Assembly: GCA_948567375.1 (NCBI GenBank)
Contig: OX419756.1
Location: forward strand, 73,112,333-73,176,332
Origin: Lunularia cruciata
Lineage: Eukaryota > Streptophyta > Marchantiopsida > Lunulariales > Lunulariaceae
Length of the DNA: 64,000 bases
Direction of reading: 5' to 3'
The translations under genes were made by a program, and so were the position numbers. Positions within the stretch are counted from its first letter, which is position 1. The number at the start of each line of letters is the position of its first letter. The notes under the pieces are model-generated. The model saw nothing but the letters and a program-made list of their open reading frames with translations. It was not told the origin of the DNA and ran no database searches. Below, one piece after another: positions 4,159 through 38,127 of this stretch.

Positions 4159-4243
4159 CCGAGTGTGCCACATGATATAGAGAGACTCACCTAGCAGTCT
4201 CATCTCTCTCTACATACAAGTACCTCTGTACTCGTATACCCGC

Positions 4244-5390
4244 CTATAATATTGCAGCTAGTCCGGTGCTAATCTCACCAAACAACTCCAATGGATATAT
4301 CTCCTCTACTGGATATTGCCAAGCAACGAGTGTGATATCTAGAGGGGTCAAAGTAATCGACTCTGGAAGCTCATCCTCACACTCATCTACCGATGGTACA
4401 AAGGCTCCACTCCAAGCCTGTTGCACCAATTGATCTGCATGTTGTTGTAACGCCTCCTCTAAACTCCACAATGGAACATCCAAGGTGGATGGAACAATCC
4501 CACTTGTACTCCAAATCCGAGTGATATCCCCTAGTACTGGAGTATCCTCTGCATGGGCATTCCCCTCCAACAAGTCACCAGGCCAAGTAATTGCACCATT
4601 GAAAGCTAAAACTGATGTTGCCATGGCCATGGACGATAGTGAGCCAAGACTACCACTATTGAAGCATACTGGTAGGCGACATACCCGTCCCTCACTAGAC
4701 TGCCAACCTGGTCTATAGGAGGTTATCTCCTCCTAGTAGTAAATATTGAAACCCATGGGGTATAACACGGCTCCCGCAACTAGCACATCATATGACTCAG
4801 TTGTTGTTGCAATAGCCTGAGCTCTCACCACCGGGCTATCAATCGGATGACCAGGCTGAACTTGGACAACAAGCTCCCCACGTGTGATGTATTGTGTCGA
4901 ACCACCACCTAGAGATGTCTAGATCTGAAATGGACACCTCTCCACATCGGTCTTCCGTAACTCCAGACCGACAACTGTAGCCTTCCCCAACATAAGAGGC
5001 TATGCACAAAGTCTAATAAAACTCTATGTGGTGTATAGACCTTCCTTAAAGGTCCCACCAAATGGAAAATTCCCCTCTGGTTATCCAATAGGACAACACC
5101 AGGTGTGAACCGTGCTCTTTCAAAGGCTGGTCTAGCTGGCAACTCCTCTAGTCTAGCCGCTATTGCCTTCCATAAACCACTAGTTGTTGAATGGATCCCA
5201 TGCTCCTCAACCAAGTCCACTCCACTATCGACCACCTCTACTTTAGTAGTAGGAACTGCATCATCCTTACTCTCAAAAAGCGTGGCAGCCAGCCAAAACA
5301 TTGGGGTTGGGTCAACTTCCAATGTAAACATGTCACTAGTTGAAAACAAAGGATGCCGCATAATCAGTTGAGCCGCCCCTAACATCATGC
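4244..5390 (-). pseudogene. Protease and start of DNMT domain, copy B
   Basis: The minus strand carries the protease-like region (about 5,390 to 4,750) and then a frame from 4630 to 4244. That frame ends in the methyltransferase motif I region, PLELFGEISTGLAAIL, equivalent to LLELFGGINTGLAAVL in copy D. Motif I binds S-adenosylmethionine in C5 methyltransferases. The second Gly of the glycine loop is Glu here. The chromovirus A insertion at 4158 removes everything downstream. B is thus a second, independent witness that the DNMT domain belongs to the element. Confidence 0.75.
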
Positions 5391-10648: not shown

Positions 10649-10650
10649 AA

Positions 10651-17034: not shown

Positions 17035-17045
17035 AAGGAGGGATG
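17033..17045 (+). other. Polypurine tract of copy C
   Basis: The purine-rich stretch AGAAGGAGGGATG sits directly before the 3' LTR and is the expected plus-strand primer site. It overlaps the end of the chromodomain reading frame. Confidence 0.75.
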
Positions 17046-17047
17046 TA

Positions 17048-17780: not shown

Positions 17781-17785
17781 CCATA

Positions 17786-19060
17786 TGATGTGCCAGTTGG
17801 TGGAGTAATGTTATACCCTATGGGTTTTAATATTGACTATTAAGAGAAGACAACCTCTTAAAGACCAAGTTGGTAGTTAGGCAAGGGCCCGGTATGTTGC
17901 CTACCAATACGCTTTAGTAACGGTAATCTTGGCTCATTACAATCAAGGACTAGAGCATCAGTTTCAGCTTTTAATGGTTCCATTACTTGGCTTGGTGATT
18001 TATTGGAGAGGAATTCTCATGCAAAGGATATTCCAATACCAAAGGAAATCACTTGGATTTGGAGTATGAGTGGGATTGTTATATCTACCTTGGATGTTTT
18101 CATTGTGGAGTTTTGAGGAAGCATTACAATAGCATGAGATCAGCTGGTGTAACATGCTTGGAGTGGAGCCTATGTACCACTAGGAGACCAATGTGAGGAT
18201 GAGTCTTTGAAGTCTATAACATTGTCACCTTTGGATACCACACTCATTGATTGGCAATATCAAGTAGAGGGAGTATGACTATTGGAGTTGTTTGGTGAGA
18301 TTAGCACTGGACTAGTTGTGGTATTATAGGTAGATATAAAAATACAAAGGTACTTGTATGTGGAGAGAGACAAGACTGCTAAGCAAGTCTTTCTACATCA
18401 TGTGGCACACTTGGCCTATTGGTATCCTGAGTTCTTATCAATGTCAACAATTAGGGATTACCAAAAGACCCTACCAATAGATATTTCCTTGTTGGGAGCC
18501 AAGAGTTGGAGAGACATGGTCCCTTTCATTTAATGATTTTGGAGGACCATGTTAGGAATATACATATGTTGGACAAGGTTAGGATCTCCAAGATCTCCAT
18601 TTTGGTGTGTTTTAGGAGATGTTATGTATACTATGACATCTTTAAGTTTATCAACCCATTTCTCCAGCCTATATTTTGGAAAACATCCCTTTGATGGGTG
18701 ATTCTATACTCAGGTGGTGGTGAGTACACATTATATTGAGTTTCCTAAGCTCCCATGTTTTTTGAGAAGGAGGCCTTGGACTTATTTGGGACTCATAGTT
18801 ATAGCAATTGGTGGAACCCAACACCAATGAGAGGGAGCAAGTGATGGGTTTTCATACTAGCATTATTATTATTATAGTAGTGTTTGAGGCATCTAGATAT
18901 CTGGTGTTAGGTTGGGTTTAGGTTATGGACCTAAATTTTTTGACTAGGATTATGAGCCTTGGCTTTGCAGAGCAACATAGGATACGCTTGATAGGCATCA
19001 CCACCCATACATTTGTAAGCTCTATGCCTATCAAGACAATTTAGGCACTTATTGGGGTTT
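17786..19060 (+). pseudogene. DNMT domain of copy E
   Basis: After copy C the E frame resumes with the end of the protease and the linker, then the motif I region (LELFGEISTGLVVVL) near 18,285. YLYVERDKTA follows. In a shifted frame near 18,535-18,560 Pro-Cys is retained, but the following Gln codon is TAG. Motifs VIII-X (about 18,750-19,060) are only recognisable by alignment to copy D. Many stops make it non-functional. It confirms that the DNMT domain lies between protease and RT in the family. Confidence 0.7.
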
Positions 19061-19199
19061 GATGGATAGAGTAGGTAGGGTATTCTTGGGACCACAATGG
19101 CTACTAATGAGAGTAGTCTACTTGGGGTCCATCCAAGTGAGCGTGGTCTACTTGGGATGCAACTAGAGGACATATAGAGCTTGCAAACAAGCATAGGAA

Positions 19200-20760: not shown

Positions 20761-20839
20761 AGGATCAAACTGGAGCACATTGATATGGTAAGATAGATGC
20801 TAGGTTGGCATGCATCTACCTTTCTATGTATATTTTTTG

Positions 20840-22854
20840 AGGCTTTGGTGGTATCTCTCTCAAGGCATCTCAGAGGAGTTATTGAGGTCATAGATGCAAA
20901 GGGTAGAGATGTTAGTATAGTTCAACAAGACATTCATGATGGATTGATTGTCTTTGCACTAGTGTTGTGGGTGGCATAAATGATGTCAAGGAGAGAACTT
21001 GTGTTCTTCAATGAGCTAGGCAGTTTAGATTAGAGGGTAGATACCTTCTACGTGTATGGGAGGATAGTAGAGTGCGAGTAATATACTTTCATCTTAGAGA
21101 CCATAGTTGGTATGTCATGCTCATGAGGAGCTAGGACATTTTGGAGTAAAGCATACATATATGTAATACTCCAAGGACAAGAGAAGAGAGAAAACATAGA
21201 TTTCACACTCAATCATCCGATGCCCCAAAGGAACACCTTCTCTTTATTATATAGACAAAGAGGATCTCCTCCAAGGAAGCTCCACCATAGGATTAGGCAC
21301 ACAGATAGGTGACATGCCAACAAACTCCACCCTTGGATTACTTACTTGGATGGGTGACATGTCGGTCCAGGTCCTATCTAGTTGGTCAAAAAAGCTTTGA
21401 TTGGAGGGAATCTTTTAGAGAATATTCTTGTAGGAATCTTAGAATCACATGGGTAAGGTACAATTGGAAAGTTCTTGACAAGACAAACCAGTGGGTAAGG
21501 TATAGTTGGAAAGCTCTTGATGAGACAAACCAGGGAGGAGGGAAGGTCAACCTCTCTTTTGTTGGAGGGGAATTTGCACATTTTCGAGGCCTAATTCATT
21601 TGTTTAGGCCTCCAAAATTGCCTTCAAAGATTTCAGGTAGAGTCTCCTATTAGTAGAGTGATTCTGAGATTCCTACAAGAATAGGAACCTACTATATTAG
21701 TAGAGTCTCCTTTTGGTGATACCTCTTTCTGATCTATTTAGTCCATCATGTGTAACATCCTTCCATATGTTACCAAACCAATTTTCACCTTTAAATCATA
21801 TGTCTAGCTATTGATTCTAAAGTTTTCAAGTCTATTTTGGTTTCTGCACTATTAGTAGAAGTACTCTTTTGGTGATACTTCTATCTAATCTATTTTGACT
21901 ATCATGTATAACATCTTCCAGATGTTACCAAACCAAATTCATATCTAGATCATATGGCTAGCTCTTGGTATTACAATATAGTTTACTTTAGAGTCATTAT
22001 TGGTGGCACTCACAATATGTAGACCAATGTACAACCATTTGTTGCCAGATGTGTGGTTTATGATTGAGTTAGAGCATCATCTAATGCTCCTACACCATAG
22101 TTATACCCATTACCTATCATGTGCTTGGGTTACTATTGGAGTTTGGACTTTATTGGACCTTTACCATTGACTATGATATATCATTGGTATGTTTTGGTTA
22201 TGGTAGAGCACTTCTCCAATTGGATTGAGTTGGTGGTATTTCTTGACAAGTCCAATCAAAGGATGGATTACTTATTGCAAGATTGGGTTTTAGTCATTTT
22301 GGTGCAATTGAGGTTTTGACTAATCAAGGTATAGAGTTCTTGGGGGAGTTTCAAGTCTTGTATGACAAGGCCTTGATTGATCATCAAACTACCTCTCAAG
22401 ATCACCTTGAGGTAGATGGCTTAGTAGAGAGAGTGGTTCAGATAGTGAAGAGGCCACTTGGGAGATTGCATAAGTATAGTTTGTATAGAGGCCACTTGGG
22501 AGATTGGGATCTCTAGTTACCTTGGTAGGCCATGGGCTATCAATTCAGCTGGCAAGCCTCCTTAATATCCTTCTCTCCTTACACTCTACTCTATGGATAA
22601 GATCCAGATTTACCAACAGCTATTTGTCATGATGCTACTATAATTTTGGACTTGGATGATCTAAACTTGTATGAGTGAGCAACGAGCAAATGCTGATAGC
22701 TTTTGAGAACTTGGCAATTGCTCAGCATAGGGATACCTTATGCTATGCTACTATTCAAGGAGGAGGTTATAGATCCTCAATCCATTGATTTCATCTAGGT
22801 CATTATGTATATCTATAGCAGACAACATCGACAACACTTGATGTTACTACACGC
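20840..22854 (+). pseudogene. Integrase of copy E, split by solo LTR F
   Basis: The zinc-binding HAHEELGHFG equivalent lies near 21,115-21,145, before LTR F. The catalytic core resumes at 21981, with SLDFIGPLPL near 22,140 and LTNQGIEFLGEF near 22,310 (Asp of the triad replaced by Asn). The region containing the third residue follows near 22,420. Stops and a 30-bp local duplication (TTGTATAGAGGCCACTTGGG region near 22,450-22,510) disrupt it further. Confidence 0.72.
21162..21975 (-). repeat. Solo LTR F (family 2)
   Basis: A complete family 2 LTR on the minus strand (TGTAATACCAAGAG... to ...GGAGTATTACA when read in its sense) with no internal sequence. It is flanked by ATATA at 21157-21161 and 21976-21980. 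The 814-bp length includes a duplicated stretch near 21,437-21,540. It interrupts the integrase of copy E. A solo LTR is the usual product of recombination between the two LTRs of an element. Confidence 0.88.
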
Positions 22855-22859
22855 TATTA

Positions 22860-23651
22860 TAATACCAATAGCTAGATATATTATCTAGAGGTGAAAATTG
22901 ACTTGGTAACATCTAGAAGGACGTTAGGTACCATAGGCTAGGTAGATTACATAGAGGCATTGCAGAAAGAGCACTTCTACTAATAGAGCAGGAGCTAAAA
23001 ACAACTTAAACTCTATAATAGTATAACTCAAGTTGTTTTAATAAAATAATATATATAATACTAAATAGTTAAACATGTGATCCAAAGGTGAAAATTAGAT
23101 TGGTTACATCTAGGAGGATGTTATAGATAATGGACTAAGTAGATCAAATAGAGGTATCACCAAGAGAGTACTTCTACTAATAAGGCATGAGCCAAGAATA
23201 GCCTGAAAACTTATATCAATTTTGGAGGCCCAAATGGATGAATTAGGCTTTGAAATTGTGCTTTTCCCCCTCCAATAAAAAAAAGGCTAACTTCTCCTCC
23301 CTTTAGGTTTGTCTCATTGAGAGCTTTCCAATAATACCTCACCCACATGATTTGGAGATTCTTACAAGAAGATTCCCTAAAGATTCTCTCCAATCAAAGA
23401 TGGTTTGTCCAACTAGATTGGAGTAGAACCAACATGTCACACATGCATGCAAATAATTTAAGGGTAGAGCTCACCAAATGTCACCAATCCATGTATCTGA
23501 TCCAAGGGTGGAGCTTCCTTTAGGGGAGTCCTCTTTACTTATATAATATAGTCAAGGTGCTTCTTTGAGGCATCGGAGGATTGACTGTAAAGCTTGTGTT
23601 TCCTCTCATGTGTTTCTCTTAAGGTCTCTTATCCTCATAAGATAACAATTG
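22860..23651 (+). repeat. Solo LTR G (family 2, diverged)
   Basis: A diverged family 2 LTR lies on the plus strand with the conserved blocks AATACCAATAGCT, TTGGTAACATC-like and TATATAATA. It is flanked by TATTA at 22855-22859 and 23652-23656. Copy E resumes on both sides between the integrase C-terminus and the PHD segment. The terminal dinucleotides are degraded. Confidence 0.72.
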
Positions 23652-23656
23652 TATTA

Positions 23657-23965
23657 TCTTGAGAGTGTGTGAGGTTTTGTCTTCTGAAGTCCTTGTGTTA
23701 GAAAGATGTGATGGTGTTGTTTGGAAGGACCATGTGTGCAATTGTGTACCATGCCACCTCCCAAACATTGATGGCACTATGGACCCAAACTTGGCACTTG
23801 TACATGTAGGCTTGCGATGTATGTTATGCGGATCTTTTGATGGAGTTGCCACTAGGTTAGTGTGTGATAATTGTTTGAGAGGATGGCATATGATATATGG
23901 CATATTTGACTCCTCTCCTTATGGTGGTTTAGGGACAATGGTTATGTACTAGATGTACTTGACAA
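23657..23965 (+). pseudogene. PHD-finger segment of copy E
   Basis: The reading VWKDHVCNCVPCHLPNIDG and then CMLC, CDNC and GWH matches the D PHD finger. The downstream CxxC pair survives in another frame (LCTRCT) after a frameshift near 23,905. It shows that the PHD segment is an old, shared part of family 1. Confidence 0.75.
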
Positions 23966-24129
23966 ATAGCTAGTTCACCCGCTATATGATATAGATTCAG
24001 ACAAGCGACTAACAATGGGGTTCAATAGCACTTGGCCTCTTGATCTTTGCACGCTATAGGATATACCATATACTTGGAGTAGATGGCTATCTAGAGTTAG
24101 AAGGACCTAACAGCCAACTAGGGAGTGAT

Positions 24130-25407
24130 TATGGTACTTTAGAGTTCATGTATGACTTATGGGTGAGTTGTGCTACTATAGTGTATGATGTGGTGTTGAC
24201 AATGATGTATGTTGCATAGCAATGTTGTCACGCCATTTGTAGTTCCACATCTAGCTGCTCGGACACTAGAGTTCCAGTGATAGTAGTTAGAGTTATTCTA
24301 GCAATTTCTCAAGGACTACTTTCCGACAGTCATATTTAGTGTTCGGGGTACTGACTTCACGGTGGGGCCCACCGTCACTTTGCACCGTTTGCACCGTCGA
24401 GTGTGCCATCAGCGGGACCGTTAGGGTTTCAATGCTAGCTCGAGTCTAGGGGGTATAGTTTCAAAGTGAGCTCCAGAGAGCTCACTTCTCTGATGTTGAG
24501 CCTTCGAGTTCCTGGCTATGGTGGACAGAGGCCGGCGAGCATCACCTGGATTCTCTATGCTTGAGTGGGTGTGGCTTGACTGTAATCAGTGCCCAATTGT
24601 TGGCAGTTTATAGAGTGACAGATCAAGTACTGATCTGAGTTGAGTTGAGTTGAAAGTGTTAAGCAATCTGATTACATCAGAGAAGTGAAGTCAGGGGGAA
24701 ATCGGGTGCAGGAATGTTGAGTGTTGGTGGTATCTCCAAGCTCGGTGGATCGTGGTAGCTCAATTCAAGTTCTATGTTTCCCTAGTGTGCAGAAGCTCGT
24801 TCAAGTGATTCAGATTTGGCAATTAGGCGGATGGTGTGCGGAAGCGCTGGCCAAATTTTGAGCAAAGAAGGAGCAATTTTTGAGCAGTGTTGTGATTTTG
24901 AGCTCATGAGGTGAAGGCAGGACCAATCTGATGCGAGTTGGGCTCAAAAAGTGAAATTGAAGGTGGAGCTGGGAAGCTCTTCTCATGAAATTGTGATTTG
25001 GAAAAACCCGTTTTGTCAATTTGGCTCGAGTGGAAAGTTAGCGGGGGATTTGGCGGACAGCCATCTTTAGAGGCTTTGAGGCATAGGGTTTTGGGCTATG
25101 AGAGGCTACGAAGGCCTAGCAAGCTAGCTTGCTGGCGTGAGGCTAGCTAGTTTAGAGTAGATCTTGGTCATTGGTTTGCAAAATCTGCCTTTCTTGCTAG
25201 ATTGTGCGCAACAGGGTTTGACCCCTAGATCTCTTGGTCCTAGACTAGTGCCCTAGCCAACTGGTCCACCCTCACTTGTTGTCCTAGTGACTGGGCCACT
25301 GTTATCTATACACATGTAGCTTTGGCTAGGAGAGGCAGTTTGATCCCATTCTTGGTGATCCTGGTAGCTTAGGACTTAGATACGAACTGCTTTTATGTCA
25401 AATGCCA
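24130..25407 (+). repeat. LTR shared by copies E (3') and D (5')
   Basis: 1278 bp, beginning TATGGTACTTTAGAG (TGTGGCACTTTAGAG at 33268) and ending AATGCCA. It follows the E PHD/PPT region directly and precedes the D primer site directly. The conserved inverted repeat AAGTGAGCT...AGCTCACTT is at 24464-24487. Confidence 0.85.
25203..25270 (-). other. tRNA-like block inside the LTR
   Basis: The minus strand reads like a tRNA: GTTGGCTAGGGCAC resembles the D arm/A box, and GGGGTCAAACCC (GGTTCAAACCC in copy E, 10445-10512) resembles the T arm/B box at roughly normal spacing. Anticodon and acceptor stems do not pair cleanly, so it is not called a tRNA gene. It is absent from the copy B LTR. Confidence 0.45.
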
Positions 25408-25409
25408 AA

Positions 25410-25424
25410 TGGTAGCAGAGTCAG
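25410..25424 (+). other. Primer binding site of copy D
   Basis: TGGTAGCAGAGTCAG lies two bases after the LTR end. It differs from the common initiator-Met site TGGTATCAGAGC at two of twelve positions. Confidence 0.65.
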
Positions 25425-25734
25425 TCCCGTGTTGTGTTATGAGATGGAGGGTTTTTGTTTAGATTTCTTGTGATTGGATCCCCTCCATTCTATGCTTCCT
25501 ATTTGTGCACCACGTGTGTATGAGGTGCCCTGACTTTTGAGCGTTGGTGCTCTGGTGTGCTCTTGGTGGTGAGGCTGGAGTGATGACCAGTCAGACTACC
25601 TTTGTTTCTCTCTGGTGAGGCAGGAAGTGATGACTTGCAGACCATGAGAGTGCGTGTTATGATGGCAGGTTATAGGTTGCCTTTCCCCTAGTGTAGTTAT
25701 CTCGGTTAGAGTTACATTAGTGGGTGGTGTCTAG

Positions 25735-27763
25735 TTGATGTTGGCACGTGGTGGTGTTGGCACTTGGTGGGGCACTTGCGGTTGCGACTTGTGGTTGCAA
25801 TTGGTGGTTCGGGTTTGCTGTTGCAGTTACGTGGTCACGACGGAGTTCTTTGGAGATTCCAGAGGAGTTAGCCCTACAATACGTAGTGGGTTTACTTGGA
25901 GTGGTGCTCGGTATCAGCCTGTATCTCAGGTCCAAGTGAGGGAGGAGATTGACTCTGAGTTGGAGTTTGACATAGGAGCTGATTCAGTTGAGAGTGCACT
26001 TGGTGTGTCCGCACCGTTGTTGTGGGACATGGACAAGATTTATGGGGCCTCCAAAGACCCTAAGCGTTACTCTGGTATAGTGGGTACCATTGAGTTGGAT
26101 GACTTCATCCAGGAGTTCGATAGTTGGTGTGATCTGCAGCAAATGCGGAACCTGACTTTGTTCACACCTTTCATGGCATGGAAGGGGTTGTTTCAGCATC
26201 TGGAGGGTCTGCCAATGGATGATTACCATGAGTTCAGGAGAGCTCATTTGGAGGAGATTGAGTTATGGAGACAGTATTGGTCTCCACACTATGTTTCCAT
26301 CACTTCACGCTTGGTGGCCAGGAGTAGATCAGCTATACCCACGAGTTCTAGCTTGAGTAGTGTTGGTGGAGCTAGTGTTGGTGCACTAGCTGGAGATAGT
26401 GTGGTACCGGGGTTTAACTCCATGGTTGAGTTCTTCCTATGTTTGAGGTAAAACTACCAAGGAGTGTGGACTGACAAGTTGAGGAGCTTGCAAGAGTTCC
26501 AGCGGAAGGCTAGAGAGAGCCTACGCGAGGCATACACTCGCATGAGGCGGCTGATCAGTTTCACTCAGGGAGTTACTGAGACCCAGGCAGTCCAGTTTTG
26601 GTATGGGATACTGGACAGGGAGTTGCGACATAGAGTTTGTGATGCTACGTTGCTGTAGGCTACTTCACCCACTTTGGCAGTAGTCTTTGGTTTGGCTGAG
26701 CGTATTGAGCTCAACATGGTGGAGGAGAGAGTGGTGACATCTGGATTTGGTAGGGAGACCTCATCCACGGCTGTGACTTCTTCTAGAGTGCAGCAGAGTG
26801 CACCACGCCCAGTTGGTTTTCGAGGATAGGGTGGACAGCCCAGATCCTATGGAGCGAGTGGAGGGCCTAGTGGAGTTAGACCCTTACCCTCATTTTTGGG
26901 TCAGCAGCAGCCAATGAGTGGTGGTATTGCTTGTTGGACTTGTGGTGGACCTCACTATAGGAGAGAGTGTACTCAGGGTAGCGGACCTGATACCTCTGGT
27001 GCATCACAGCCAGCACAGAGGCAGTGTGAGCACTGCCACAGATTTGGTCACACTAGTGACCGGTGTTTTGACCTACACCTAGAGTTACGGAGTGGTAGGG
27101 CTGCTATGGCAAGTAGTAGAAGAGCTCCAATTCATGGAGGACGAGGTGGTAGAGGTGGTGGTAGAGGATCTACACCTAGTAGGGGTGCATTACCTGCCCT
27201 TACTTCTGACACAACTATGGCTACTCGGATTGAGCAATTGGAGCAGAGATTGGCTAGTATGGCTATTGCTCAGAGGAGATCAGATTTGGGTGTTGAGGCT
27301 TCCACCTCATATGCTAGTGATAGAGATGCTTTGGACTTCATGTGCGGAGCAGTACAGGTGGATGCATCTGTAGCAGTGACTAGGAGTGCAATACGTGCTC
27401 CAGAGCCTAGAGGAGCATTAGTGGAGTTGGACCCACAAAGAGGAGAGGTTGGGAGACAGGTCAGACTTCCCCAGTCTTTCACGCTATCTGAGGCATTGTA
27501 GACAACATCCATGGTTCCTAGATGTCCCAATGCAGGTGTGGTAGGTGGTGATGGAGTACATGATGGACTACCTATTAGTCAGCCACCTACTACTACACAG
27601 GCTGAGTCTAGCATGATGTTGGGGGCGGCTCAGCTGATTATGCAGCATCCTTTGTTTTCAGCCAGTGACATGTTTACATTGGGGGTTGACCTAGCCCCAG
27701 TGTTCCGGTTGGCTGCCACAATGTGTGAGAGTAGGGATGGTGCAATTCCTACTATTGGAGCAT
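25735..27763 (+). pseudogene. gag of copy D
   Basis: The N-terminal part (to 26451) contains the capsid-like core IELDDFIQEFDSWCDL and FTPFMAWKGLFQHLEG. After stops at 26449-26451 (TAA), near 26,658 and near 26,829 (TAG) comes the nucleocapsid part. It has two zinc knuckles, CWTCGGPHYRREC (C-x2-C-x3-H-x4-C) and CEHCHRFGHTSDRC (C-x2-C-x4-H-x4-C), at about 26,931-27,066, then a Gly/Arg-rich tail. Further TAG codons at 27,499 and 27,763 precede the protease. Alignment to copies B and E indicates CAG or CAA at several of these stops. The product would form the particle and bind RNA. Confidence 0.85.
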
Positions 27764-27765
27764 AG

Positions 27766-28300
27766 GTGGTTGGTAGTGGAGGTGACTTGGTTGAGGAGCA
27801 TGGGATCCGTTCAGCAACCAGTGGTTTATGGCAGGCAACAACGGCTAGACTGGAGGAGTTGCCAACTAGACCGGCCTTTGAGAGAGTGCGGTTTACACCT
27901 AGTGTTGTCCTATTGGATAACCAAAGGGGGATTTTTTGTTTGGTGGGACCTTCAGGGAAGGTCTATACACCACAGAGAGTCTTGTTAGACTCTGGTGCGC
28001 AGCCCCTTATGTTGGGGAAGGCTGTAATTGTCGATCTGGAGTTACGGAAGACCGATGTGGAGAGGTGTACATTTCAGATCCAGACATCTCTAGGTGGTGG
28101 TTTGACACAGTACATCACACGTGGGGAGCTTGTTGTCCAGGTTCAGCCTGGTCATCTGACTGATAGCTCGGTGGTGAGAGCTCAAGCTATTGCGACGATA
28201 GTTGAGTCATATGATGTGCTAGTTGGGGGAGCAATGTTATACCCTATGGGTTTCAGCATTGACTATTGGGAGGAGATAGCCTCTTATAGACCTGGTTGGA
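27766..28300 (+). pseudogene. Aspartic protease of copy D pol
   Basis: The frame reads VYTPQRVLLDSGAQPLMLGK, with the catalytic D-S-G-A loop near 27,985-28,000. A YDVLVGGAMLYPMGF stretch follows, corresponding to the second hydrophobic loop of retropepsins (DIILGMDWL in Ty3). It cleaves the polyprotein in related elements. It is open and continuous with the DNMT N-terminus in one 390-codon frame (27766-28938), which shows that the protease and methyltransferase were one polyprotein. Confidence 0.8.
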
Positions 28301-29765
28301 AATCTGGTGAGGGACGGGTATGTCGCCTACTAGTACGCTTCAGTAGTGGCAGTCTTGGCTCACTACAGTCCGGGACCATGGCAACATCAGTTTTAGCTTT
28401 CAGCGATGTAGTTACTTGGCCTAGTGACTTGTTGGAGGAGAACGCCCATGCAGAGGATACTCCAGTACCAGAGGAGATCACTCGGCTTTGGAGTACGAGT
28501 GGGATTGTTCCATCCACCTTGGATGTTCCATTGTGGAGTTTAGAGGAGGCATTGCAGCAGCATGCAGATCAGTTGGTGCAGCAGGCTTGGAGTGGAGCCT
28601 TTGTACCATCAAGGGATGAGTGTGAGGATGAGCCTCCAGAGGCAATTGCTTTGACACCTCTGGATACCACACTCATTGCTTGGAAGTATCCAATAGAGGA
28701 GATATGTCTATTGGAGTTGTTTGGTGGGATCAACACCGGACTAGCTGCGGTGTTACAGGCGGGTATACAAGTACAGAGGTACTTGTATGTAGAGAGAGAT
28801 GAGACTGCTAGGCGAGTCTCTCTACATCATGTGTCACACTTGGCCTATCGGTATCCGGAGTTATTACCGATGTCAGCAGTCAGAGGTTACCAAAAGGCCT
28901 TACCAGGAGACATTTCTTTATTGGGGCGCATGACCTAAAGAGATATGGGCCTATTCACTTGGTGATTTCTGGATGGCCATGTCAGGGACATACACGTGCG
29001 GGCCACGGTTTGGGTCTTTAGGATCCTCGTTCTGGTGTGTTTTGGGAGATGTTACGGATACTACGACATCTCAAGGTTCATCAGTCTGTTTCTTTAGCTT
29101 ACCTTTTGGAGAACGTTCCATTGATGGGTGATTCTCGCACTATAGTGGTGGCGAGTACACATCAAGTCCATTCATGGATGGGACCTACTGTATTGTTAGA
29201 TGCAGCCAGAGTGGGATCACGGGCTCATCGTCTTCGTCTTTGGTGGACAAACTTCTTACCCAGAGAGGTTCTACAGTGTAGTTATGATGGGATTCAGCGA
29301 CTAGACCACATTCTTGTTGATGATATCTTGGATGCTGGATGTCAGTCTTAGACAGCGGTAGTGGCTGATAGGTCACCTATGGTAGTGGTGAACCTAGTTG
29401 GACAGCCTAGAGCTGCATTTCCCACACTCATGAGTTTCCCAAGCTCTCATGCTTTTTGAGAGGGAGGACCTGGACTTGTTTGGGACTCACAGTTACAGCA
29501 GTTGGTGGAGCCCAATGCTGATGAGAGAGAGCGGGCGATGGGTTTTTGCACAGGTATTACCGCTGTTCCAGCAGTGTCAGAGGCATCTAGGCATCAGGTG
29601 TTAGGTCAGGCTATGGACTTGAACTGTTTGACCTGGGTTGTGAGCCTTGGCTTGGCAAAGCAGCATAGGATGCGCTTGATAGGCATCACCACTTGGACAC
29701 TTGTGAGCCCTGTGCCTATCGAGACGATTCAAGCATATACTGGGGGCGATGGACCGAGTGGATAG
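28301..29765 (+). pseudogene. C5 cytosine DNA methyltransferase domain in copy D pol
   Basis: A linker of about 130 residues leads to motif I, LLELFGGINTGLAAVL (SAM binding, near 28,708-28,750), then YLYVERDETARR (motif II-like acidic residue). Motif IV, GWPCQGHTRAG, has its catalytic Cys codon at 28980-28982. Motif VI is ENV near 29,112, and motif VIII is AHRLRLWWTNFLPR near 29,220-29,265. Motif IX/X-like PNADERERAMGF and RHQVLGQAMDLN lie near 29,510-29,620. The order is canonical, not permuted as in DRM, and motif VIII resembles DNMT3. Breaks: one base lost in the G run at 28923-28926 puts motif I out of frame with motif IV. TAG occurs at 29019-29021 and near 29,348, TGA near 29,457, and TAG near 29,762. 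Family members methylate C5 of cytosine in DNA. Here the natural target is unknown. Confidence 0.88.
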
Positions 29766-31568
29766 GGTATTCTTGGGACACATCCAATAGCTACTAGGGA
29801 GAGTGGTCTACTTGGAGTCCATCCAGGTGAGCATGGGCTACTTGGATTACACCCTTGGTCCACATGGGATGCAGCTAGAGGACGTGTGGAGCTTGCAGCC
29901 AGAGTGGAGGGAGTTTTTCACACAGAGGTTGGGACCTCTAGTGGTCGAGAGCATGACACTATTGCTCCCAAGGGCCCAGTGTAGCAGCCAGTCAATACAT
30001 CTTCCACTCCTACTACACTTACAGAGGATACTCAGGAGCCAGATCTTGGACCCAAGCTTATTGGAGAGGAAAGACGGAGGGTTTGGAGGTTCTTGAGGAG
30101 TCACACGAGTTGTTTTGCCTTCAGTATGAAGGATTTGGGTGCTCTGAAGGGACCAGGTATACGGATTGAGCTGACTAGCAACACACCAGTTTTCCGACGT
30201 CCTTATCCATATAGTGAGATGGAGAGGACATTGATTCAGAGCCGGAGTAGTGACCTTTTTGAGGCTGGTTTGGTGGAGATTTCACATGGAGAGTATGCAT
30301 CAGCGACAATGATGCCAGCCAAGAAGGATATACATGGCAACTATACAGATAGGCGGATGTATGGAGATTACCGTCCTATCAACCGACAGACCAGGGCTAA
30401 TTGGTATGCCATGCCTACACCGGAGGAGATTTTTGATGCGATTGGGCATGCAAAGGTCTTCAGTACTTTGGATCTTCGAGCGGGATATCATCAGTTGCCA
30501 ATTAGGGAGGAGGATAAGTCCAAGACAACATTTTGGGCTATTGATCCTCACGGCAAGGATGTGTTATATCAGTGGAGGTTCTTACCATTTGGGTTGAAGA
30601 ATGCTCCTGCTGAGTTCCAGAGGGTCATGGATAGGATCCTAGCTGGATTGGATTTTGCTCGGTGCTATATTGATGACATTTTGGTTTATAGCACTACTAT
30701 GGAGGAGCATGAGAGACAGTTGTTGGAGGTGTTTGAGAGGTTGAGATCTCATGGACTCAAATTACATCCTGGGAAGTGTAGGTTCTTCCACGAGCAGGTT
30801 GAGTATTTGGGTCATACTATCTACCCCAAAGGACTTGGTGTTCAGCAGACCAAGGTGGAGGCTATTGCACATATTCCTCGGCCTACGGATGTGAGCAGAG
30901 TGCGAGCATTCCTTGGGTTGGAAAACTTCTATCGCCGCTATGTTAGAGGATTTAGTGCCATTGCCAAGGCCTTGACAAAGCTGACCAAGCTTACACAGGA
31001 GTGGTGTTGGGGAGATGAGCAGGAGAGAGCTTTTGTAGAGCTCAAGGAGAGGTTGACATTTGCTCCTATTTTGAGGAGACCGATCAGGGGACGACCATTT
31101 CAGGTTCACACTGATTGGAGTATGTTGGGGCTTGGAGCGGTGCTCACCCAGCATGATGATGATGGGAAGGAGTTTGTGGTGGCCTATGCTAGTCGCTCCA
31201 ACAATTCAGCGGAGGTGAAGTATAGTTCATATGAGGGAGAGTGCTTGGCAGCAATTTGGGCAGTAGCACATTTCCAATGTTACCTGTTTGGTAACCCCTT
31301 CACTCTCATCATTGATCATCAGCCGTTGAAGTGGTTGATGGAGTCCGACAAGCTTTCAGGGAAGCTTGCACGATGGGCTTTGATTTTACATGAGTATGAT
31401 TTCACGGTTGTTCACAGACCTGGAGTGGTGAACCATGATGCAGATGGGTTGAGTAGAAACCCATGTCCCAGCCAGCAGGATCAGACCGAAGCACGTTGGC
31501 ATGGTGAGACAGATGAGGAGATGGTGCCAGGTTGGCATGCATCGGCCTTTCTATGTATATTTGCATAG
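29766..31568 (+). CDS. Reverse transcriptase and RNase H of copy D
   Basis: A long open stretch with 491 codons after the Met at 30093. RT motifs in order are EAGLVEIS, MYGDYRPINRQT, STLDLRAGYHQLPI, FLPFGLKNAPAEFQR and the catalytic CYIDDILVYS (YIDD). The connection ENFYRRYVRGF leads to RNase H, with Asp in FQVHTDWS, Glu in YEGECLAAIW and Asp in IIDHQPLKWLM, then HRPGVVNHDADGLSR. Upstream, 29,766-30,092 continues the same polyprotein across a TAG near 29,983. It is typical of Ty3/gypsy pol. This is part of a broken polyprotein, not an independent gene. Confidence 0.9.
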
Positions 31569-31571
31569 GCT

Positions 31572-32753
31572 TTGGTGGTATCTCTCTCAGCGCATACAGG
31601 AGGAGTTATTGAGGTCACAGATCCAGAGAGTGAAGATATTGGTACAGTTCAGCAAGACATTCATGATGATGTCTTAGTGATGGGCTATCTTTGCACTAGT
31701 GTTGTGGGTGGCACAGTTGGGGCCAAGGAGAGAGATCGTGTTCTTCAGCAAACCAGATGGTTCAGATTGGAGGGTAGACACGTTTTGCGTGTATGGGAGG
31801 ATGGTAGAGTGCGAGTAGTACCACTTCCATCACAGAGACTACAGTTGGTCCGTCATGCTCATGAGGAGCTAGGACATTTTGGAGTAAAGTGTATGTATAG
31901 CTTACTCTAGAGTCATTATTGGTGGTGCGGCATGCAGACCAAGGTACAGCAGTTTGTTGCCAGATGTGTGGTTTGTGACCGAGTTAGAGCATCATTCAAT
32001 GCTCCTACGCCACAGTTACACCCATTACCTATCATGGGATTGGGTTATCATTGGAGTTTGGACTTCATTGGACCTTTACCGCTGACTGTGAGACATCATC
32101 GGTATGTTTTGGTGATGGTGGAGCACTTCTCCAAGTAGATTGAGTTGGTGGCACTTCTTGATAAGTCTAGTGAAGGGACAACTTACTTGTTCTTGGATCG
32201 AGTTCTTAGTCATTTTGGTGCACCAGCTGAGGTTTTGACTGATCAGGGTACAGAGTTCTTGGGAGAGTTTCAGGTCTTGTGTGACAAGGCTTTGATTGAT
32301 CATTGTACTACATCCCGAGATCACCCTGAGGCAGACGGCTTAGCAGAGAGAGTGGTTCAGACGGTGAAGAGAGGATTGCGAAAGTATGGTTTGCAAAGAG
32401 GCCACTTGGGAGATTGGGATCTCCAGTTACCTTGGTTGGCCATGGGCTATCGGTTCAGCCGGCAAGCCTCCTTAGCATCCTTCTCTCCATACTTTCTACT
32501 CTATGGACAAGATCCAGATTTACTTGCAGCCATTTGTCGAGATGCTATTATAGTTTTGGACTTGAATGACCCCGATGTATGGATGAGCGCATGTTCTCAG
32601 CAGGCAGAGATCTTTCGAAGAGTGATGCCGATGGCCTTTGAGAACTTGGCGATTGCTCAGCATAGAGATACTTTACGCTATGCGACCATTCGAGGAGGAG
32701 GTTATAGACCCTCAATCCGTCGATTTCATCCATGCGACTATGTATATCTATAG
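31572..32753 (+). pseudogene. Integrase of copy D
   Basis: The N-terminal zinc-binding HHCC site is seen as HAHEELGHFG and CVVC. Catalytic residues are Asp in WSLDFIGPLPL, Asp in LTDQGTEFLGEF and Glu in ADGLAERVVQTVK, with about 34 residues between the last two (DDE type). TAG codons near 31,908 and 32,137 interrupt the core. At the second, copy E has TGG. Two TAG codons at about 32,752-32,757 separate it from the PHD segment. Integrase joins element cDNA to host DNA. Confidence 0.85.
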
Positions 32754-32798
32754 TAGATAGCACCGACGACACTTGATGTTTCTACAGGCCGCACTATC

Positions 32799-33098
32799 TT
32801 GAGAGTGCGTGAGGTTTTGCCATCTGGAATCCTTGTGTTAGAAGGATGTGATGGTGTTGTTTGGAAGGATCATGTGCGCAATTGTGCGCCATGCCACCTT
32901 CCAAACATTGATGGTACTATGGACCCAAGCTTGGCACTTGTACCTGCAGGCTTGAGGTGTATGTTATGTGGCTCTTCTGGTGAAGCTGCTACTATGTTAG
33001 TGTGTGATAGCTGTTTGAGAGGATGGCATATGGCATGTATGACTCCTCCCCTCACGGTGGTTCCTCAGGGACAGTGGTTATGTCCTAGATGTACTTGA
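32799..33098 (+). CDS. Integrase C-terminal tail with PHD finger, copy D
   Basis: The frame continues the integrase C-terminus (VREVLPSGILVLEGCDGVVW) and ends in a C4HC3 PHD finger. That has CMLC at 32958-32969, then CDSC, the RGWHMAC block giving His and Cys, a conserved Trp (GQWLC) and the last pair CPRC just before the stop. PHD fingers usually read histone H3 tails. The position is that of the chromodomain in chromoviruses, so a targeting role for integration is inferred. It is open in this copy. It probably belonged to the pol polyprotein, since the only breaks upstream are TAG codons. Confidence 0.85.
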   Translation: MRVREVLPSGILVLEGCDGVVWKDHVRNCAPCHLPNIDGTMDPSLALVPAGLRCMLCGSSGEAATMLVCDSCLRGWHMACMTPPLTVVPQGQWLCPRCT

Positions 33099-33252
33099 CC
33101 TATAGCTAGTTCATTCTTTATATGGTATAGATTGCAGACAGGCAACTAACGATGGGGCTCCATAGCATCCGGCCTCCTGATCTTTACCCATTAGAGGGTA
33201 TACCATATACTTAGAGTAGATGGCTATCTGGAGTTAGAGGGACCTAACCGCC

Positions 33253-33267
33253 AGCTAGGGGGGCGAT
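33253..33267 (+). other. Polypurine tract of copy D
   Basis: The G-rich stretch AGCTAGGGGGGCGAT lies directly before the LTR start TGTGGCAC. It marks the internal/3' LTR boundary. Confidence 0.7.
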
Positions 33268-33824
33268 TGTGGCACTTTAGAGTCTATGTATGACTTATGT
33301 GTGGGTTGTGCTTCTATAGTGTATGGTGTTGACAGCGATGTATGTTGTGTAGCGATGTATATACGCACGATAACTGTCACGCCATTTGTAGTTCCGCATC
33401 TAGCTGCTCGGACACTGGAGTTCCAGTGATAGTAGTTAGAGTTATTCTAGCAGTTTCTCAAGGACTACTTTCCGACAGTCAGATTTGGTGTTCAGGGTAT
33501 TGACTTCACGGTGGGGCCCACCGTCACTTTGCACCGTTCACACCGTCAAGTGTGCCGTCAGCGGGACCGTTAGGGTTTCAGTGCTAGCTCAAGTCTAGGG
33601 GGTATAGTTTTGAAGTGAGCTCCAGAGAGCTCACTTCTCTGATGTTGAGCCTTTGAGTTCCTGGCTATGGTGGACAGAGGCCGACGAGCATCACCTGGAT
33701 TCTCCATGCTTGAGTGGGTGTGCCTTGACTGTAATCAGTGCCCAGTTGTTGGCAGTTTATAGAGTGACAGATCAAGTACTGATCTGAGTTGAGTTGAGTT
33801 GAAAGTGTTAAGCAATCTGATTAT
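33268..33824 (+). repeat. 3' LTR of copy D, truncated
   Basis: It matches the first ~545 bp of the LTR at 24130 and stops at CAATCTGATTA, where the full LTR continues CATCAGAGAAG. The inverted repeat GAAGTGAGCT...AGCTCACTTC is at 33612-33637. Confidence 0.88.
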
Positions 33825-34351
33825 TGTGGCACTTTAGAGTCTATGTATGACTTATGTGTGGGTTGTGCTTCTATAGTGTATGATGTTGACAGCAATGTAT
33901 GTTGTGTAGCGATGTATATACGCACGACAATGTAGATATGCATGATCACAACATTTGTAGTATCAAAGCTAGATTGCTCAGACACTGGAGTAGTAGTGTT
34001 GGTAGTCATAGACATTTTGGTAGTTACTCATCGACTACTTATTTATGGTCCAATTTCATGGTAGGACTACAGATCACCATCACTTGCACCGTTGGATGTG
34101 TTGTAAGCAGTGCCGTTAGGGCTAGAGAGAGTGTAGCTTTAGTGTAGCTCTAGAGAGCTCACTTCTTTGATGTTGAGCCTTTGAGTTCCTGGCTATGGTG
34201 GACATAGGCTGGTGAGTGTCACTTGGAGTCATTTAGCTAGAGTGGGTATGGCTTGATTATAATCAATGCCCAATTTTTGCTAGAGTGTTGAGTGAATGAT
34301 CAAGTACATATATGTTTGAGGGTGATTCAAGTTGAAGACGAGCTGATTGAT
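33825..34351 (+). repeat. Second truncated LTR unit
   Basis: It restarts at TGTGGCACTTTAGAG and runs about 527 bp. It ends at GAGCTGATTGA, the same LTR position at which the preceding unit ends. It is more diverged than that unit. Confidence 0.8.
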
Positions 34352-34460
34352 TGTGGAACTTTAGAGTTCATGTATGACTTATGTGTGGGTTGTGCTTCTA
34401 TAGTGTATGATGTTGACAACAATGTATGTTGTGTAGCGATGTAGATAAGGACAACACTTT
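34352..34460 (+). repeat. Third LTR fragment
   Basis: It restarts again at TGTGGAACTTTAGAG and keeps about 110 bp before similarity ends near GTAGATAAGGACAAC. Confidence 0.75.
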
Positions 34461-36130: not shown

Positions 36131-37146
36131 TTTTGAGAAAAGGCGACCGCGTAGAAAACACGAATGATGGGAAGACCCCATCATCAATACTTTAGTTGAT
36201 ATACTTCATGGTAGTTCCTACTGTGTCGTCCACCTTGTGGATATCCGAGGTACCTCTTTTGGAAAAGAATGTGCGAGCAAGATTTCATGTTAAAGTGAAG
36301 CATATCTTCTTGTTGAACCTTACTTGATAGTCGACTTTTTTCTCTCACTTGATAGTCGAATGGAGGAAAAAGTCAAACAAGATTTAAGTCAAACAAAAAT
36401 TTGATTTGAAAGATTTGACCTTAGCGTATCACACCGTTGAATTGTGGGCACAATTGATTCCCCCACGATCAAAATATCCACTTCAAATTAATAATGGAGG
36501 GGATCCACCCCTCGTCGATGCCGTTCAATCAAGTCTTGATACAAATGCCGAAAAGTTGTGGCTGCTAGAATATTCTAATCAGCTAATCAACCTCGTTGAA
36601 TCCAATGTTTCTTCATTCGATCTCCATAAGGCATGCAGTTCCTCGCCTTTGGGATTCTCTTCGTGCGAGGAGACGGGCGGAAGTCTCTATCGGTCATTGT
36701 CATTGGCTATGACGGCCTCCTTTTGGTCAGCTGAGAACCGGTCACTATCATAGCGGTATGGGCCAGGACGAATCTCAACGTACATTACGGAAACTGAGAC
36801 CTCTGAATATTCCGTCTGGATTTAGTGAAGCGAAAGTGCATGGAGCCGGGAGATCAGTGACTGTGATTGCTCCATGGCCCTGACAAGAATGAAGTATCTA
36901 CTGATAGAAGATCAGATAATTGAGTCCAATGGTGGGAAGAATATAGTTCGAGACCACCGCGAAATCCCCTCAAGCACGTTGACAGACTAGGCCGGGATGT
37001 ACCCGCATGGTCTTCTTACACTGTGCTTTGACGACACACATTTGGTGACAAAAACATTGAAGAATACTTCATTTTTGTCAACAGCAGAGGAAATTGATTG
37101 TGCATAGGAAAGTTTCAAAGTTTGCAACGTAATATAGGCAGCTGCG
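36131..37146. other. Upstream region of the fibrillin gene
   Basis: No gene is supported here. It contains a directly repeated ACTTGATAGTCGA at 36322-36334 and 36347-36359 and a copy of the dispersed GGGGTCTTCCC repeat. A moderately GC-rich stretch (36,400-36,980) without a convincing frame lies nearer the gene. The promoter of the gene at 37147 should lie here. Confidence 0.4.
36134..36188 (-). repeat. Dispersed GGGGTCTTCCC repeat, copy 1
   Basis: The minus strand reads GATGATGGGGTCTTCCC, then a CGTGTTTTCTACGCGG-type block. Only the 3' half of the repeat is present. Confidence 0.6.
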
Positions 37147-38127
37147 ATGGCAGCCTTGAGTGTCGTCTCGTCGGTAGCGCTTGGCCGGTTGAAAACATGC
37201 AACGTTGGGGTGGTCGATGAGGCTAAAGCTCAGAAATGCTGGGGCCCCAGCAATTGCAGGACGACTACAGAGTTGAGGAGCCAAGGACTCGTTTCAAACA
37301 GTTGGGCCCATAGGAGAGTTTTGCGACCCTGGGTAGTAAGAGTATCGGGTGAGGGATTGCTGACTACTGACCCGGCATCAGGTGTAGATTCTGAATCAGA
37401 AAGGGAAAGGCTGGAAGCACAGTTGTTCGCACAAATCGAAGCTTCGCCTGGAAACTTGAGTGAGGACTGTATTGCCACTATTGAGGAGTTGGGGAAGTTT
37501 AACCCTAATCCGGAGCCTCTGGCGAGAGATCCGGAGCTGACTGCAGGTTACTGGCATCAAATTAGAGGTACTCCCAGAGGAACAGGAAGGAAAGGGGAAG
37601 GGAAGCAGGAAGTTGGCTATGTAGGTGCCTCTGTAACTCTTGGAAGAGCTACGTTCAATGCTTTCAAGCCCGGTAATCTCGACATCGTGTTGGGCGAGGT
37701 GTACAATTATGTGGGAAAACTTGGTGCGGAAGACGAGAGTACTTATGAGCTTGTGATCATGTTCTCTACGAAGAACCCCAAAGGAGAGGACCTGCCACCG
37801 ATTGAAGGTCTGATTATCAACACAGCTGAGCAGCATGTCGAGAGCTCCTCAAGAATGGGAATAGAATTCTGTCGTGCAAAGATTCGGCCCTGCTATCCGG
37901 ATAGGGATCTTGAGGCATGGAAAGAAATCTTTGGCGAGTATAATTCTCAAATGGACGATATTGGACAGGTATTTTGGGAAAATCCACAGCCTCACAAGGG
38001 TCATTTGGACTTTATTTACATTACAGACAACAAAGTAAGGATAACGAAGGGCAATCTGGGGGGCTACTTCGTGGTTAGGAGGGTGGAGGCACCACCGGCG
38101 TTTCTCGACACCGCCAGGAAAGTGTAG
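37147..38127 (+). CDS. Plastid lipid-associated (PAP/fibrillin-type) protein
   Basis: A single uninterrupted frame of 326 codons. The start GCGATGGCA is in good plant context and is the first Met of the frame. Residues 1 to about 75 are rich in Ser, Arg and Val and poor in acidic residues, as in a chloroplast transit peptide. The mature part carries PAP/fibrillin landmarks: an N-terminal helix ending ELGKFNPNPEPLARDPEL, then the GYWHQIRG block equivalent to the family GxW motif. The C-terminal GHLDFIYITDNKVRITKG strand pair is near residues 285-305. Fibrillins coat plastoglobules or bind thylakoid lipids and help in stress protection. The subfamily is uncertain because the central region is long and diverged. 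A possible poly(A) signal AATAAA lies at 38467-38472. Confidence 0.78.
   Translation: MAALSVVSSVALGRLKTCNVGVVDEAKAQKCWGPSNCRTTTELRSQGLVSNSWAHRRVLRPWVVRVSGEGLLTTDPASGVDSESERERLEAQLFAQIEASPGNLSEDCIATIEELGKFNPNPEPLARDPELTAGYWHQIRGTPRGTGRKGEGKQEVGYVGASVTLGRATFNAFKPGNLDIVLGEVYNYVGKLGAEDESTYELVIMFSTKNPKGEDLPPIEGLIINTAEQHVESSSRMGIEFCRAKIRPCYPDRDLEAWKEIFGEYNSQMDDIGQVFWENPQPHKGHLDFIYITDNKVRITKGNLGGYFVVRRVEAPPAFLDTARKV

What the first reader, a model, noticed from the sequence alone, without database searches (positions are those of the whole stretch)
28700..29640. Ty3/gypsy retrotransposon with a built-in C5 cytosine DNA methyltransferase
Seen: between protease and RT of copy D lies a ~300-residue region with SAM-binding motif I (LLELFGGINTG), catalytic motif IV (PCQ, Cys at 28980-28982), ENV, an HRLRLWWTNFLP motif VIII and motif IX/X-like blocks in canonical order. 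Known: C5 methyltransferases share these motifs, and DNMT capture by retrotransposons has been reported for dinoflagellates and charophyte algae. Inference: a land-plant Ty3 family has captured a DNMT3-like enzyme, which could methylate its own new DNA copies or host chromatin, either to limit damage or to mark insertions.
Basis: partly seen in the sequence, partly recalled or inferred. Interest (0 to 1): 0.95.

Follow-up and report, generated by a model that had tools for sequence, protein, structure and literature searches.

The report
Jumping gene carrying a DNA-methylating enzyme
A plant genome holds well over a hundred copies of a retrotransposon that carries its own DNA-methylating enzyme, in an unusual layout that suggests the enzyme is made together with the particle protein and could mark each new copy before it inserts.

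Summary
Between protease and RT of copy D (28681-29690) lies a DNMT3-type C5-methyltransferase domain, broken in this copy. A genome search scored 120 relatives, full length within a residue and 96-100% identical, out of 13,638 candidates; 73 of 120 have no stop in the match. (1) The DNMT ends the gag-PR frame, before an ancestral stop: TAG in 67 of 68 rows, followed by the plant-virus readthrough motif CARYYA in 65 of 68. (2) The second frame is RT-RNaseH-integrase and ends in a PHD finger. (3) It has no ordinary LTRs but split direct repeats, A-coding-B-A-B, with 4-bp target-site duplications at the outer ends in 13 of 15 copies. The closest known thing is KnitGypsy-Dnmt3 of Klebsormidium nitens (PMC5890265, abstract and passages): Gypsy domains, Dnmt3, the same DIRS-type repeats. 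So this is a new variant of a known kind; PHD finger and UAG arrangement are not mentioned in that paper's main text. The DNMT shows modest purifying selection, on few sites. Self-methylation, readthrough and origin are inferred. The host has DNMT3 and DRM genes and is perhaps a liverwort.

The parts
24226..24679 (+). Repeat A1 (left split repeat) of copy D; here also the last A of the older element B in front of it (tandem)
   Evidence: blastn of A from L013, 93.9%; tandem arrangement
26143..27096 (+). gag-like region and two CCHC zinc knuckles (by motif and position; no Pfam hit)
   Evidence: tblastn of L013 segments; open in frame 1 in pieces
27907..28296 (+). aspartic protease (LLDSGA; by motif and position, no Pfam hit)
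   Evidence: tblastn 91.5%; motif read directly
28681..29690 (+). DNMT3-type C5-methyltransferase domain, broken in this copy (frame change, three stops)
   Evidence: PF00145 E 6.1e-7; PDB DNMT3A; copies
28705..28728 (+). motif I (CLLELFGG), SAM binding
   Evidence: aligned with DNMT3A in L013
28977..28985 (+). motif IV PCQ, catalytic Cys 28980-28982
   Evidence: Cys kept in 68 of 68 rows, but the rows were chosen by a match here
29109..29117 (+). motif VI ENV
   Evidence: E, N and V kept in 68 of 68 rows
29226..29246 (+). motif VIII HRLRLWW
   Evidence: its two arginines are kept in 61 and 53 of 68 rows
29523..29624 (+). motif X block (ERERAMGF ... GQAMDLN)
29982..29990 (+). conserved stop TAG and readthrough-type context CAGCCA, between the gag-PR-DNMT and RT-IN frames, same frame on both sides
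   Evidence: TAG 67 of 68, TAA 1 of 68; CARYYA 65 of 68; older copy B has TAGCAACCA
30285..31409 (+). reverse transcriptase and RNase H
   Evidence: RVT_1 3.3e-32, RT_RNaseH 1.7e-34
31785..32684 (+). integrase (H2C2 and rve)
   Evidence: Pfam on L016: H2C2 2.6e-18, rve 1.2e-12; mapped to D
32865..33095 (+). PHD finger at the C-terminus of the second frame
   Evidence: PF00628 2.2e-10 on L016; CHD4, KMT2D, KDM5, PHF21A and ATXR5 PHDs in PDB; mapped
33257..33266 (+). polypurine-like AGGGGGGCGA just before B1
   Evidence: read directly
33267..33370 (+). Repeat B1
   Evidence: 98.1% to B of L013
33375..33823 (+). Repeat A2
   Evidence: 92.7% to A of L013; 95.5% to A1 of D
33824..33929 (+). Repeat B2, right end (GACA)
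   Evidence: 98.1% to B of L013; A2-B2 seen in 16 of 18 long copies
18252..19002 (+). DNMT pieces of older copy B, many stops
4163..4321 (-). truncated DNMT start of copy A

Best explanation
This is an abundant, recently amplified Ty3-type retrotransposon family whose gag-PR frame ends in a DNMT3-family C5-methyltransferase. A stop, UAG in a readthrough context, separates it from RT-RNaseH-integrase-PHD. The element lies in the genome as A1-coding-B1-A2-B2, bordered by 4-bp target duplications, as a DDE integrase would leave. Most likely working: every gag-PR precursor carries the DNMT, and a minority of ribosomes read through UAG to make the enzymes (context shown, readthrough inferred). Particles thus hold DNMT at about Gag dose. 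The DNMT methylates the new double-stranded cDNA, probably at CG (inferred from family). The internal B1-A2 junction (GACA-G-TGTC) serves as template to complete or join the outer ends before integration (inferred from layout). The PHD finger, of a type that in several relatives reads unmodified H3K4 (recalled), steers integration to silent chromatin (inferred). A copy that arrives methylated and lands in silent chromatin does the host little harm. I put the identity and anatomy at about 0.97 and this working model at about 0.4.
For: PF00145 and DNMT3A matches. Motif IV and VI residues (C; E, N, V) kept in 68 of 68 rows (rows chosen by a match at motif IV). Non-C>T variants in the DNMT: N:S 81:27 for singletons, 7:11 for variants in 3 or more of 51 gap-free rows (Fisher p 0.004); outside the Pfam-matched stretch 64:17 against 4:9 (p 0.0009); with doubletons added to the shared class p 0.002 and 0.007. 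TAG 67/68 with CARYYA 65/68; TAG+CARYYA occurs 3 times among 1193 TAGs on the window's + strand, two of them the junctions of copies D and B. Pfam domains of the second frame. Split repeats in 16 of 18 long copies and 4-bp duplications in 13 of 15. A1 to A2 identity 90.3-99.7%, median 97.8%, in 13 long copies. 120 of 120 scored copies full length within a residue. Two retrotransposon DNMT3s of DIRS type methylate CG de novo in yeast (PMC5890265, passages). CG-to-CHG decay ratio 1.3 in the family against 0.8 in one DNMT-less pair, a hint only.
Against: No activity data. C-to-T decay is high at CG and CHG (about 6-9% of sites) and low at CHH (1.1%), which host enzymes alone explain; a DNMT-less Ty3 pair in the window shows high CG and CHG and low CHH decay too (0.18, 0.23, 0.03), and CpG O/E of five copies (0.44-0.50) is no lower than that control's (0.37). 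Selection is not seen for C>T variants (p 0.36) nor in the tail after the DNMT. In the 19-row set the DNMT's shared variants are less constrained (7 N to 10 S) than those of the other segments pooled (7 to 30). The two arginines of motif VIII are kept in only 61 and 53 of 68 rows. KnitGypsy-Dnmt3 DNMT gave no activity in yeast, judged inconclusive by its authors. RNA after the UAG folds no better than shuffles (z 0.85). I recognised no canonical tRNA primer site after A1 (read by eye).
Confidence: 0.5

Rival explanations
1. The DNMT domain was useful once but is now a passenger: copies spread on RT and integrase and the DNMT is decaying.
For: DNMT shared non-C>T variants 7 N:10 S against 7:30 for the other segments pooled in 19 rows, 18 for gag; 54 of 68 rows have a gap or stop in the DNMT.
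Against: N:S falls from 81:27 in singletons to 7:11 in shared variants; 73 of 120 best copies have no stop in it (hand count); motif IV and VI residues are kept, although the rows were chosen by a match at motif IV. Breaks are at least as common elsewhere: RT+RH open and gap-free in 4 of 19, IN 6 of 19, gag 6 of 18, DNMT 9 of 19; but these copies were picked for long open frames at the DNMT.
Confidence: 0.2
2. The DNMT acts in trans on host chromatin, or shields cDNA from host DNA sensing and nucleases, rather than marking the insertion to stay silent.
For: High copy number would give a large dose if expressed. The authors of PMC5890265 propose host effects and protection for related elements (passages).
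Against: No clear CG signature of the family was found, in a small comparison inside the window and 68 rows. K. nitens, with fewer such elements, has a plant-like methylome.
Confidence: 0.3
3. The stop is simply a two-gene boundary, and the second frame starts from its own ATG or a spliced RNA.
For: Stop codon present in 68 of 68 rows; no stimulating RNA structure. Some plant Ty3 groups separate gag-pro from RT by stops (recalled).
Against: Same frame on both sides; the second frame opens directly after the stop and its first Met is codon 48 in L015; CARYYA follows in 65 of 68 and in the older copy B.
Confidence: 0.2
4. The split repeats are an artefact: ordinary LTRs with rearranged or tandem copies.
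For: Copy D is joined in tandem to copy B; one copy, L027, ends at B1 and lacks A2-B2.
Against: Perfect 4-bp duplications (13 of 15) border exactly TGTC...GACA, with different flanks on several chromosomes; the same layout is reported for KnitGypsy-Dnmt3.
Confidence: 0.03

Closest known systems
KnitGypsy-Dnmt3 of Klebsormidium nitens (de Mendoza et al. 2018, PMC5890265; abstract and passages seen, figures not)
   Same: Gypsy domain set, intronless Dnmt3-type DNMT of non-permuted order, DIRS-type repeats (A-coding-B-A-B), purifying selection on the DNMT, a divergent Dnmt3 clade
   Different: Here: high copy number in a genome that appears to be a land plant's; PHD finger after the integrase; DNMT on the gag-PR side of a conserved UAG-CARYYA. 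The paper places the DNMT in the Pol ORF; its main text has no hit for PHD or gag. Sequences could not be compared.
SymbioDIRS-Dnmt3 of Symbiodinium (same paper, passages)
   Same: Dnmt3 in a retrotransposon with A-coding-B-A-B repeats; CG activity shown in yeast
   Different: Tyrosine recombinase, not DDE integrase; different retrotransposon class
Ngaro/PAT-type tyrosine-recombinase retrotransposons with split direct repeats (recalled; term seen in the listing)
   Same: Repeat layout
   Different: Here an rve integrase and 4-bp target duplications
Chromoviruses (Ty3 with a chromodomain after the integrase; recalled)
   Same: A chromatin reader at the integrase C-terminus
   Different: PHD finger instead of chromodomain; DNMT; split repeats
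Type I readthrough of tobamoviruses (UAG-CARYYA; PMC5382211, passages)
   Same: UAG plus CARYYA
   Different: Here in a retroelement between DNMT and RT; readthrough not measured

Membership tests
C5-cytosine DNA methyltransferase, DNMT3 family | Significant profile match | tested here: met
   PF00145 over cut-off; DNMT3A E 4.6e-11
C5-cytosine DNA methyltransferase, DNMT3 family | Motifs I, IV, VI, VIII, X in canonical (not DRM-permuted) order | tested here: met
   (X block weak by itself)
C5-cytosine DNA methyltransferase, DNMT3 family | Groups with eukaryotic DNMT3 in a tree | tested here: inconclusive
   With DNMT3/DRM 96/95 in 16 rows and 92/94 in 17, but nearer the phage enzymes in 14 rows (89/88); long branch, odd composition, few references
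C5-cytosine DNA methyltransferase, DNMT3 family | Methyltransferase activity | not testable with these tools
   needs assay
Ty3/gypsy retrotransposon | gag, PR, RT-RNaseH before integrase (rve) | tested here: met
   gag and PR by motif and position only, no Pfam hit
Ty3/gypsy retrotransposon | RT groups with Ty3 in a tree | not tested
   no reference RT set on hand; domain order only
Ty3/gypsy retrotransposon | Two identical LTRs at both ends | tested here: not met
   Left end has A only, right end B-A-B
Ty3/gypsy retrotransposon | Target-site duplication by DDE integrase | tested here: met
   4 bp in 13 of 15 copies with both ends
KnitGypsy-Dnmt3 kind | Gypsy domains + Dnmt3 + A-coding-B-A-B | tested here: met
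   against the description
KnitGypsy-Dnmt3 kind | Sequence kinship with the K. nitens element | not testable with these tools
   No eukaryotic sequence collection on hand; protein database switched off
DIRS/tyrosine-recombinase retrotransposon | Tyrosine recombinase instead of DDE integrase | tested here: not met
   rve and H2C2 found; no tyrosine recombinase family in the scan of both frames at E up to 0.1
Type I stop readthrough | UAG-CARYYA | tested here: met
   64 of 68 rows have both, a further row has TAA+CARYYA
Type I stop readthrough | Measured readthrough | not testable with these tools
   needs reporter

The most novel reading that the evidence does not exclude
One ancient plant lineage of integrase-bearing, split-repeat retrotransposons has carried a DNMT3 writer and a PHD reader since before land plants and Klebsormidium parted. 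It makes the writer at Gag dose through a suppressible UAG, pre-methylates its own cDNA in the particle and aims it at unmodified-H3K4 chromatin: a selfish element that silences itself on arrival.
Probability: 0.25. Interest if true: 0.85.

Novelty: new variant of a known kind. Interest (0 to 1): 0.64.

Why it matters
It widens a finding reported for one charophyte alga to an apparently land-plant genome in which the family is abundant and recent. That turns the question of why a transposon would methylate DNA into one that can be tested on many natural copies. If the element is kin to KnitGypsy-Dnmt3, the 'independent acquisition in K. nitens' becomes an ancient shared one. The UAG predicts DNMT dose (Gag level, not Pol level), and the DNMT plus PHD pair predicts where and in which state new copies land; both are checkable. 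The integrase-bearing split-repeat layout also poses an open question about how the ends are made.

Tried and rejected
Host DNMT3 as direct donor: the host's two DNMT3-like genes (L001, L004) do not hold the element's DNMT inside their clade; a joint clade is not rejected (AU p 0.145; 0.23). With a first set of six phages, picked as best hits to the element, the DNMT stood nearer the phage enzymes (89/88); adding phages picked by the host DNMT3 moved it to the eukaryotic side (92/94 with 17 rows; 96/95 with 16 rows). I dropped phage PCA1 from the last tree because the frame I read held 13 stops. Phage origin: 628 phage records match at E up to 1, 26-34% identical in the 15 rows listed and over little more than half the domain in 14 of these 15, as any C5-methyltransferase might. 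IMG/VR and GTDB scans gave no confirmed relative. Self-methylation signature: none clear beyond the host pattern. RNA structure after the UAG: none. Rfam: no match in the window at gathering score. Structure prediction was not run: window pieces lie in two frames, and genome loci are not among the sequences its rule names. LTR dates in years were not given because C-to-T decay is strong and no rate is known. An early reading of A as a plain 450-bp LTR was wrong. Not done for want of the busy genome server: counts of the junction patterns and PHD copies. Blasia pusilla as host: 377-390 Mb (PMC13182070, passages), too small.

Full report
What was checked. The frame-0 piece, with X at three stops, passes the Pfam DNA_methylase cut-off (6.1e-7), and its best solved relatives are DNMT3A chains (1.3e-5). 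The motif I piece lies in another frame and alone gives no Pfam match and only a weak DNMT3A match (0.4). So copy D is broken inside the DNMT. The same genome (565.8 Mb, 74 contigs, unnamed) gave 123 scored PF00145 places. I fetched 77 of the 123: 71 are copies of this family, four (L001-L004) are host methyltransferase genes by my reading, and two (L069, L079) did not match the family; 46 were not fetched.

Copies. The 71 are 18 long copies (two as 20-kb pairs, sixteen at 10 kb), 40 stretches of 1.4 kb, nine of eleven stretches chosen as odd, and L005-L008. With the three window copies, 74 sequences match the DNMT+tail DNA, and 68 span it; the six that do not are L068, L070, L072, L073 and window copies A and B. 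Median pair identity of the 68 is 96.4%. Fourteen of 68 have an open, gap-free DNMT. A later search with the L013 DNMT scored 120 of 13,638 first-look candidates, L013 included, every one full length or within a residue of it at 96-100% identity; 73 of 120 show no stop by my hand count of the listing. By position ten of the 71 are among the 120, so about 180 copies are in hand from the two searches, and the true number is surely higher. All samples were picked by similarity, so they favour well-kept copies, above all at motif IV; the 18 long ones were picked for long open frames.

Anatomy. First frame: gag with two CCHC knuckles, protease (LLDSGA), linker, DNMT (335 aa), tail of 98 aa, then TAG. 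It is open for about 1,428 aa in both 20-kb pairs, and one search lists open frames up to 1,448 aa. Second frame, same phase: RT, RNase H, H2C2, rve, and a PHD finger at the very end (1,037 aa open in L015 and L016). The stop is TAG in 67 of 68 rows and TAA in one, and the next six bases fit CARYYA in 65 of 68. The older copy B of the window has TAG-CAACCA. Because T and A, and G in CHH context, change little in this family, retention in so many copies shows that the stop is ancestral, not that it is selected. The argument for readthrough is the context: only 3 of 1193 TAGs on the window's + strand are followed by CARYYA, two being these junctions. UAG-CARYYA is the type I readthrough signal of tobamoviruses (PMC5382211, passages).

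Ends. The copies do not have ordinary LTRs. A repeat A of about 455 bases begins the element (TGTCACGCC...). At the right lie B1 (106 bases), A2 and B2, ending ...CGCACGACA, in 16 of the 18 long copies and in copy D; L027 ends at B1, and L019 shows B1 but no A within the stretch. A polypurine-like run stands before B1. Of 16 copies whose two ends were set side by side, one (L011_12) has no left A; of the other 15, 13 have perfect 4-bp duplications bordering TGTC and GACA (L015 and L023 do not). L018 and L019 could not be read at the left end. The junction B1-A2 reads GACA-G-TGTC in the clearest copies, that is, the right and left ends of the element face to face, which is what one would expect if it templates the joining or completion of ends. 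That step is inference. A1 against A2: 90.3-99.7%, median 97.8% in 13 copies; in most only part of A1 was in hand, and the L022 figure was left out because it compared a different piece.

Selection and decay. Variants were sorted by frequency, single ones standing for change after insertion. Leaving out C>T and G>A, nonsynonymous to synonymous is 81:27 for singletons and 7:11 for variants in three or more of 51 gap-free rows (p 0.004); doubletons (4:4) lie between. In all 68 rows it is 120:39, stops included, against 8:16 (p 7.5e-5). Outside the Pfam-matched stretch it is 64:17 against 4:9 (p 0.0009); with the doubletons (4:1) added p is 0.007. For C>T and G>A there is no difference (p 0.36), as expected if many recur by decay, but this also means that the case rests on few sites. 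The 98-aa tail shows no constraint. In the 19-row set the DNMT looks less constrained than the other segments (shared non-C>T 7:10 against 7:30 pooled). C-to-T decay hits CG 6.7-8.6%, CHG 5.6-5.8% and CHH 1.1% of sites. A DNMT-less Ty3 pair, older, also decays at CG and CHG far more than at CHH; the CG-to-CHG ratio is 1.3 in the family and 0.8 in that one pair, too little to single out self-methylation.

Kinship. The host has two DNMT3-like genes and a frame with permuted, DRM-like motif order (PDB matches of L001), so it is a streptophyte and not, by recalled knowledge, an angiosperm. Eight contigs of 60-85 Mb make up nearly all of it. Size and Ty3 bursts resemble Lunularia cruciata (580 Mb; PMC9985172, passages), but that is a guess from size alone. 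In a tree of 16 rows the element's DNMT sits with DNMT3A, host DNMT3 and DRM against eight phage enzymes (96/95; the program warns of the element rows' composition); two earlier trees gave 89/88 for the phage side and 92/94 for the eukaryotic side. Its branch is long, and the origin is open.

Compared with the known. The library paper of 2018 (abstract and passages) reports for Klebsormidium a Gypsy element with Dnmt3 and repeats 'the same as that of a DIRS retrotransposon'. That is this kind of element. I could not compare sequences. Four paper searches (listings, showing 30 of 49; open-licence PMC only) showed by title and abstract start no other DNMT-bearing Ty3 element; most subscription papers are not held. 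The PHD finger and the UAG-CARYYA with the DNMT on the gag side are not mentioned in that paper's main text (no hit for PHD or gag, one unrelated hit for stop codon); its figures were not seen.

PHD. The finger is closest in PDB to CHD4, KMT2D, KDM5A/B, PHF21A, DPF and, lower, ATXR5. Several of these read unmodified H3K4 (recalled), like the ADD domain of DNMT3 (recalled). That the element pairs a DNMT3 writer with such a reader is shown by sequence.

Noticed in passing
window 9677-24679 and 24226-33929: Older copy B (its 5' half is what looks like a separate gag-PR copy at 11-13 kb, apparently split by other insertions) shares its last A repeat with copy D: a tandem pair A-coding-B-A-coding-B-A-B.
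   Followed up: partly
window 33946-34456: A solo A-B repeat (A 68%, B 91% to L013) directly beyond copy D, as recombination between A repeats would leave.
   Followed up: no
window 2-1794 (minus) and 13599-15400: A second Ty3 family (RT 33-38% identical to copy D's), two copies 92% alike, one apparently inserted in copy B; used as decay control.
   Followed up: partly
L027 (C1:73639138-73649137): A copy ending at B1 with its own 4-bp duplication, no A2-B2: either B1 x B2 recombination or a one-unit insertion.
   Followed up: no
L001, L004, L002, L003: Host DNMT3-like (two), permuted DRM-like and a further C5-methyltransferase exon in the same genome.
   Followed up: partly
window 37138-38127 (+), 41655-42290 (-), 50947-51825 (-): Open frames in the right half of the window (CpG O/E 0.64 for 36-64 kb against 0.43 overall); not identified.
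   Followed up: no
L023 A2-B2 junction: Carries CATCA between A2 and B2, as after A1, where other copies lack it; may tell how the ends are joined.
   Followed up: no
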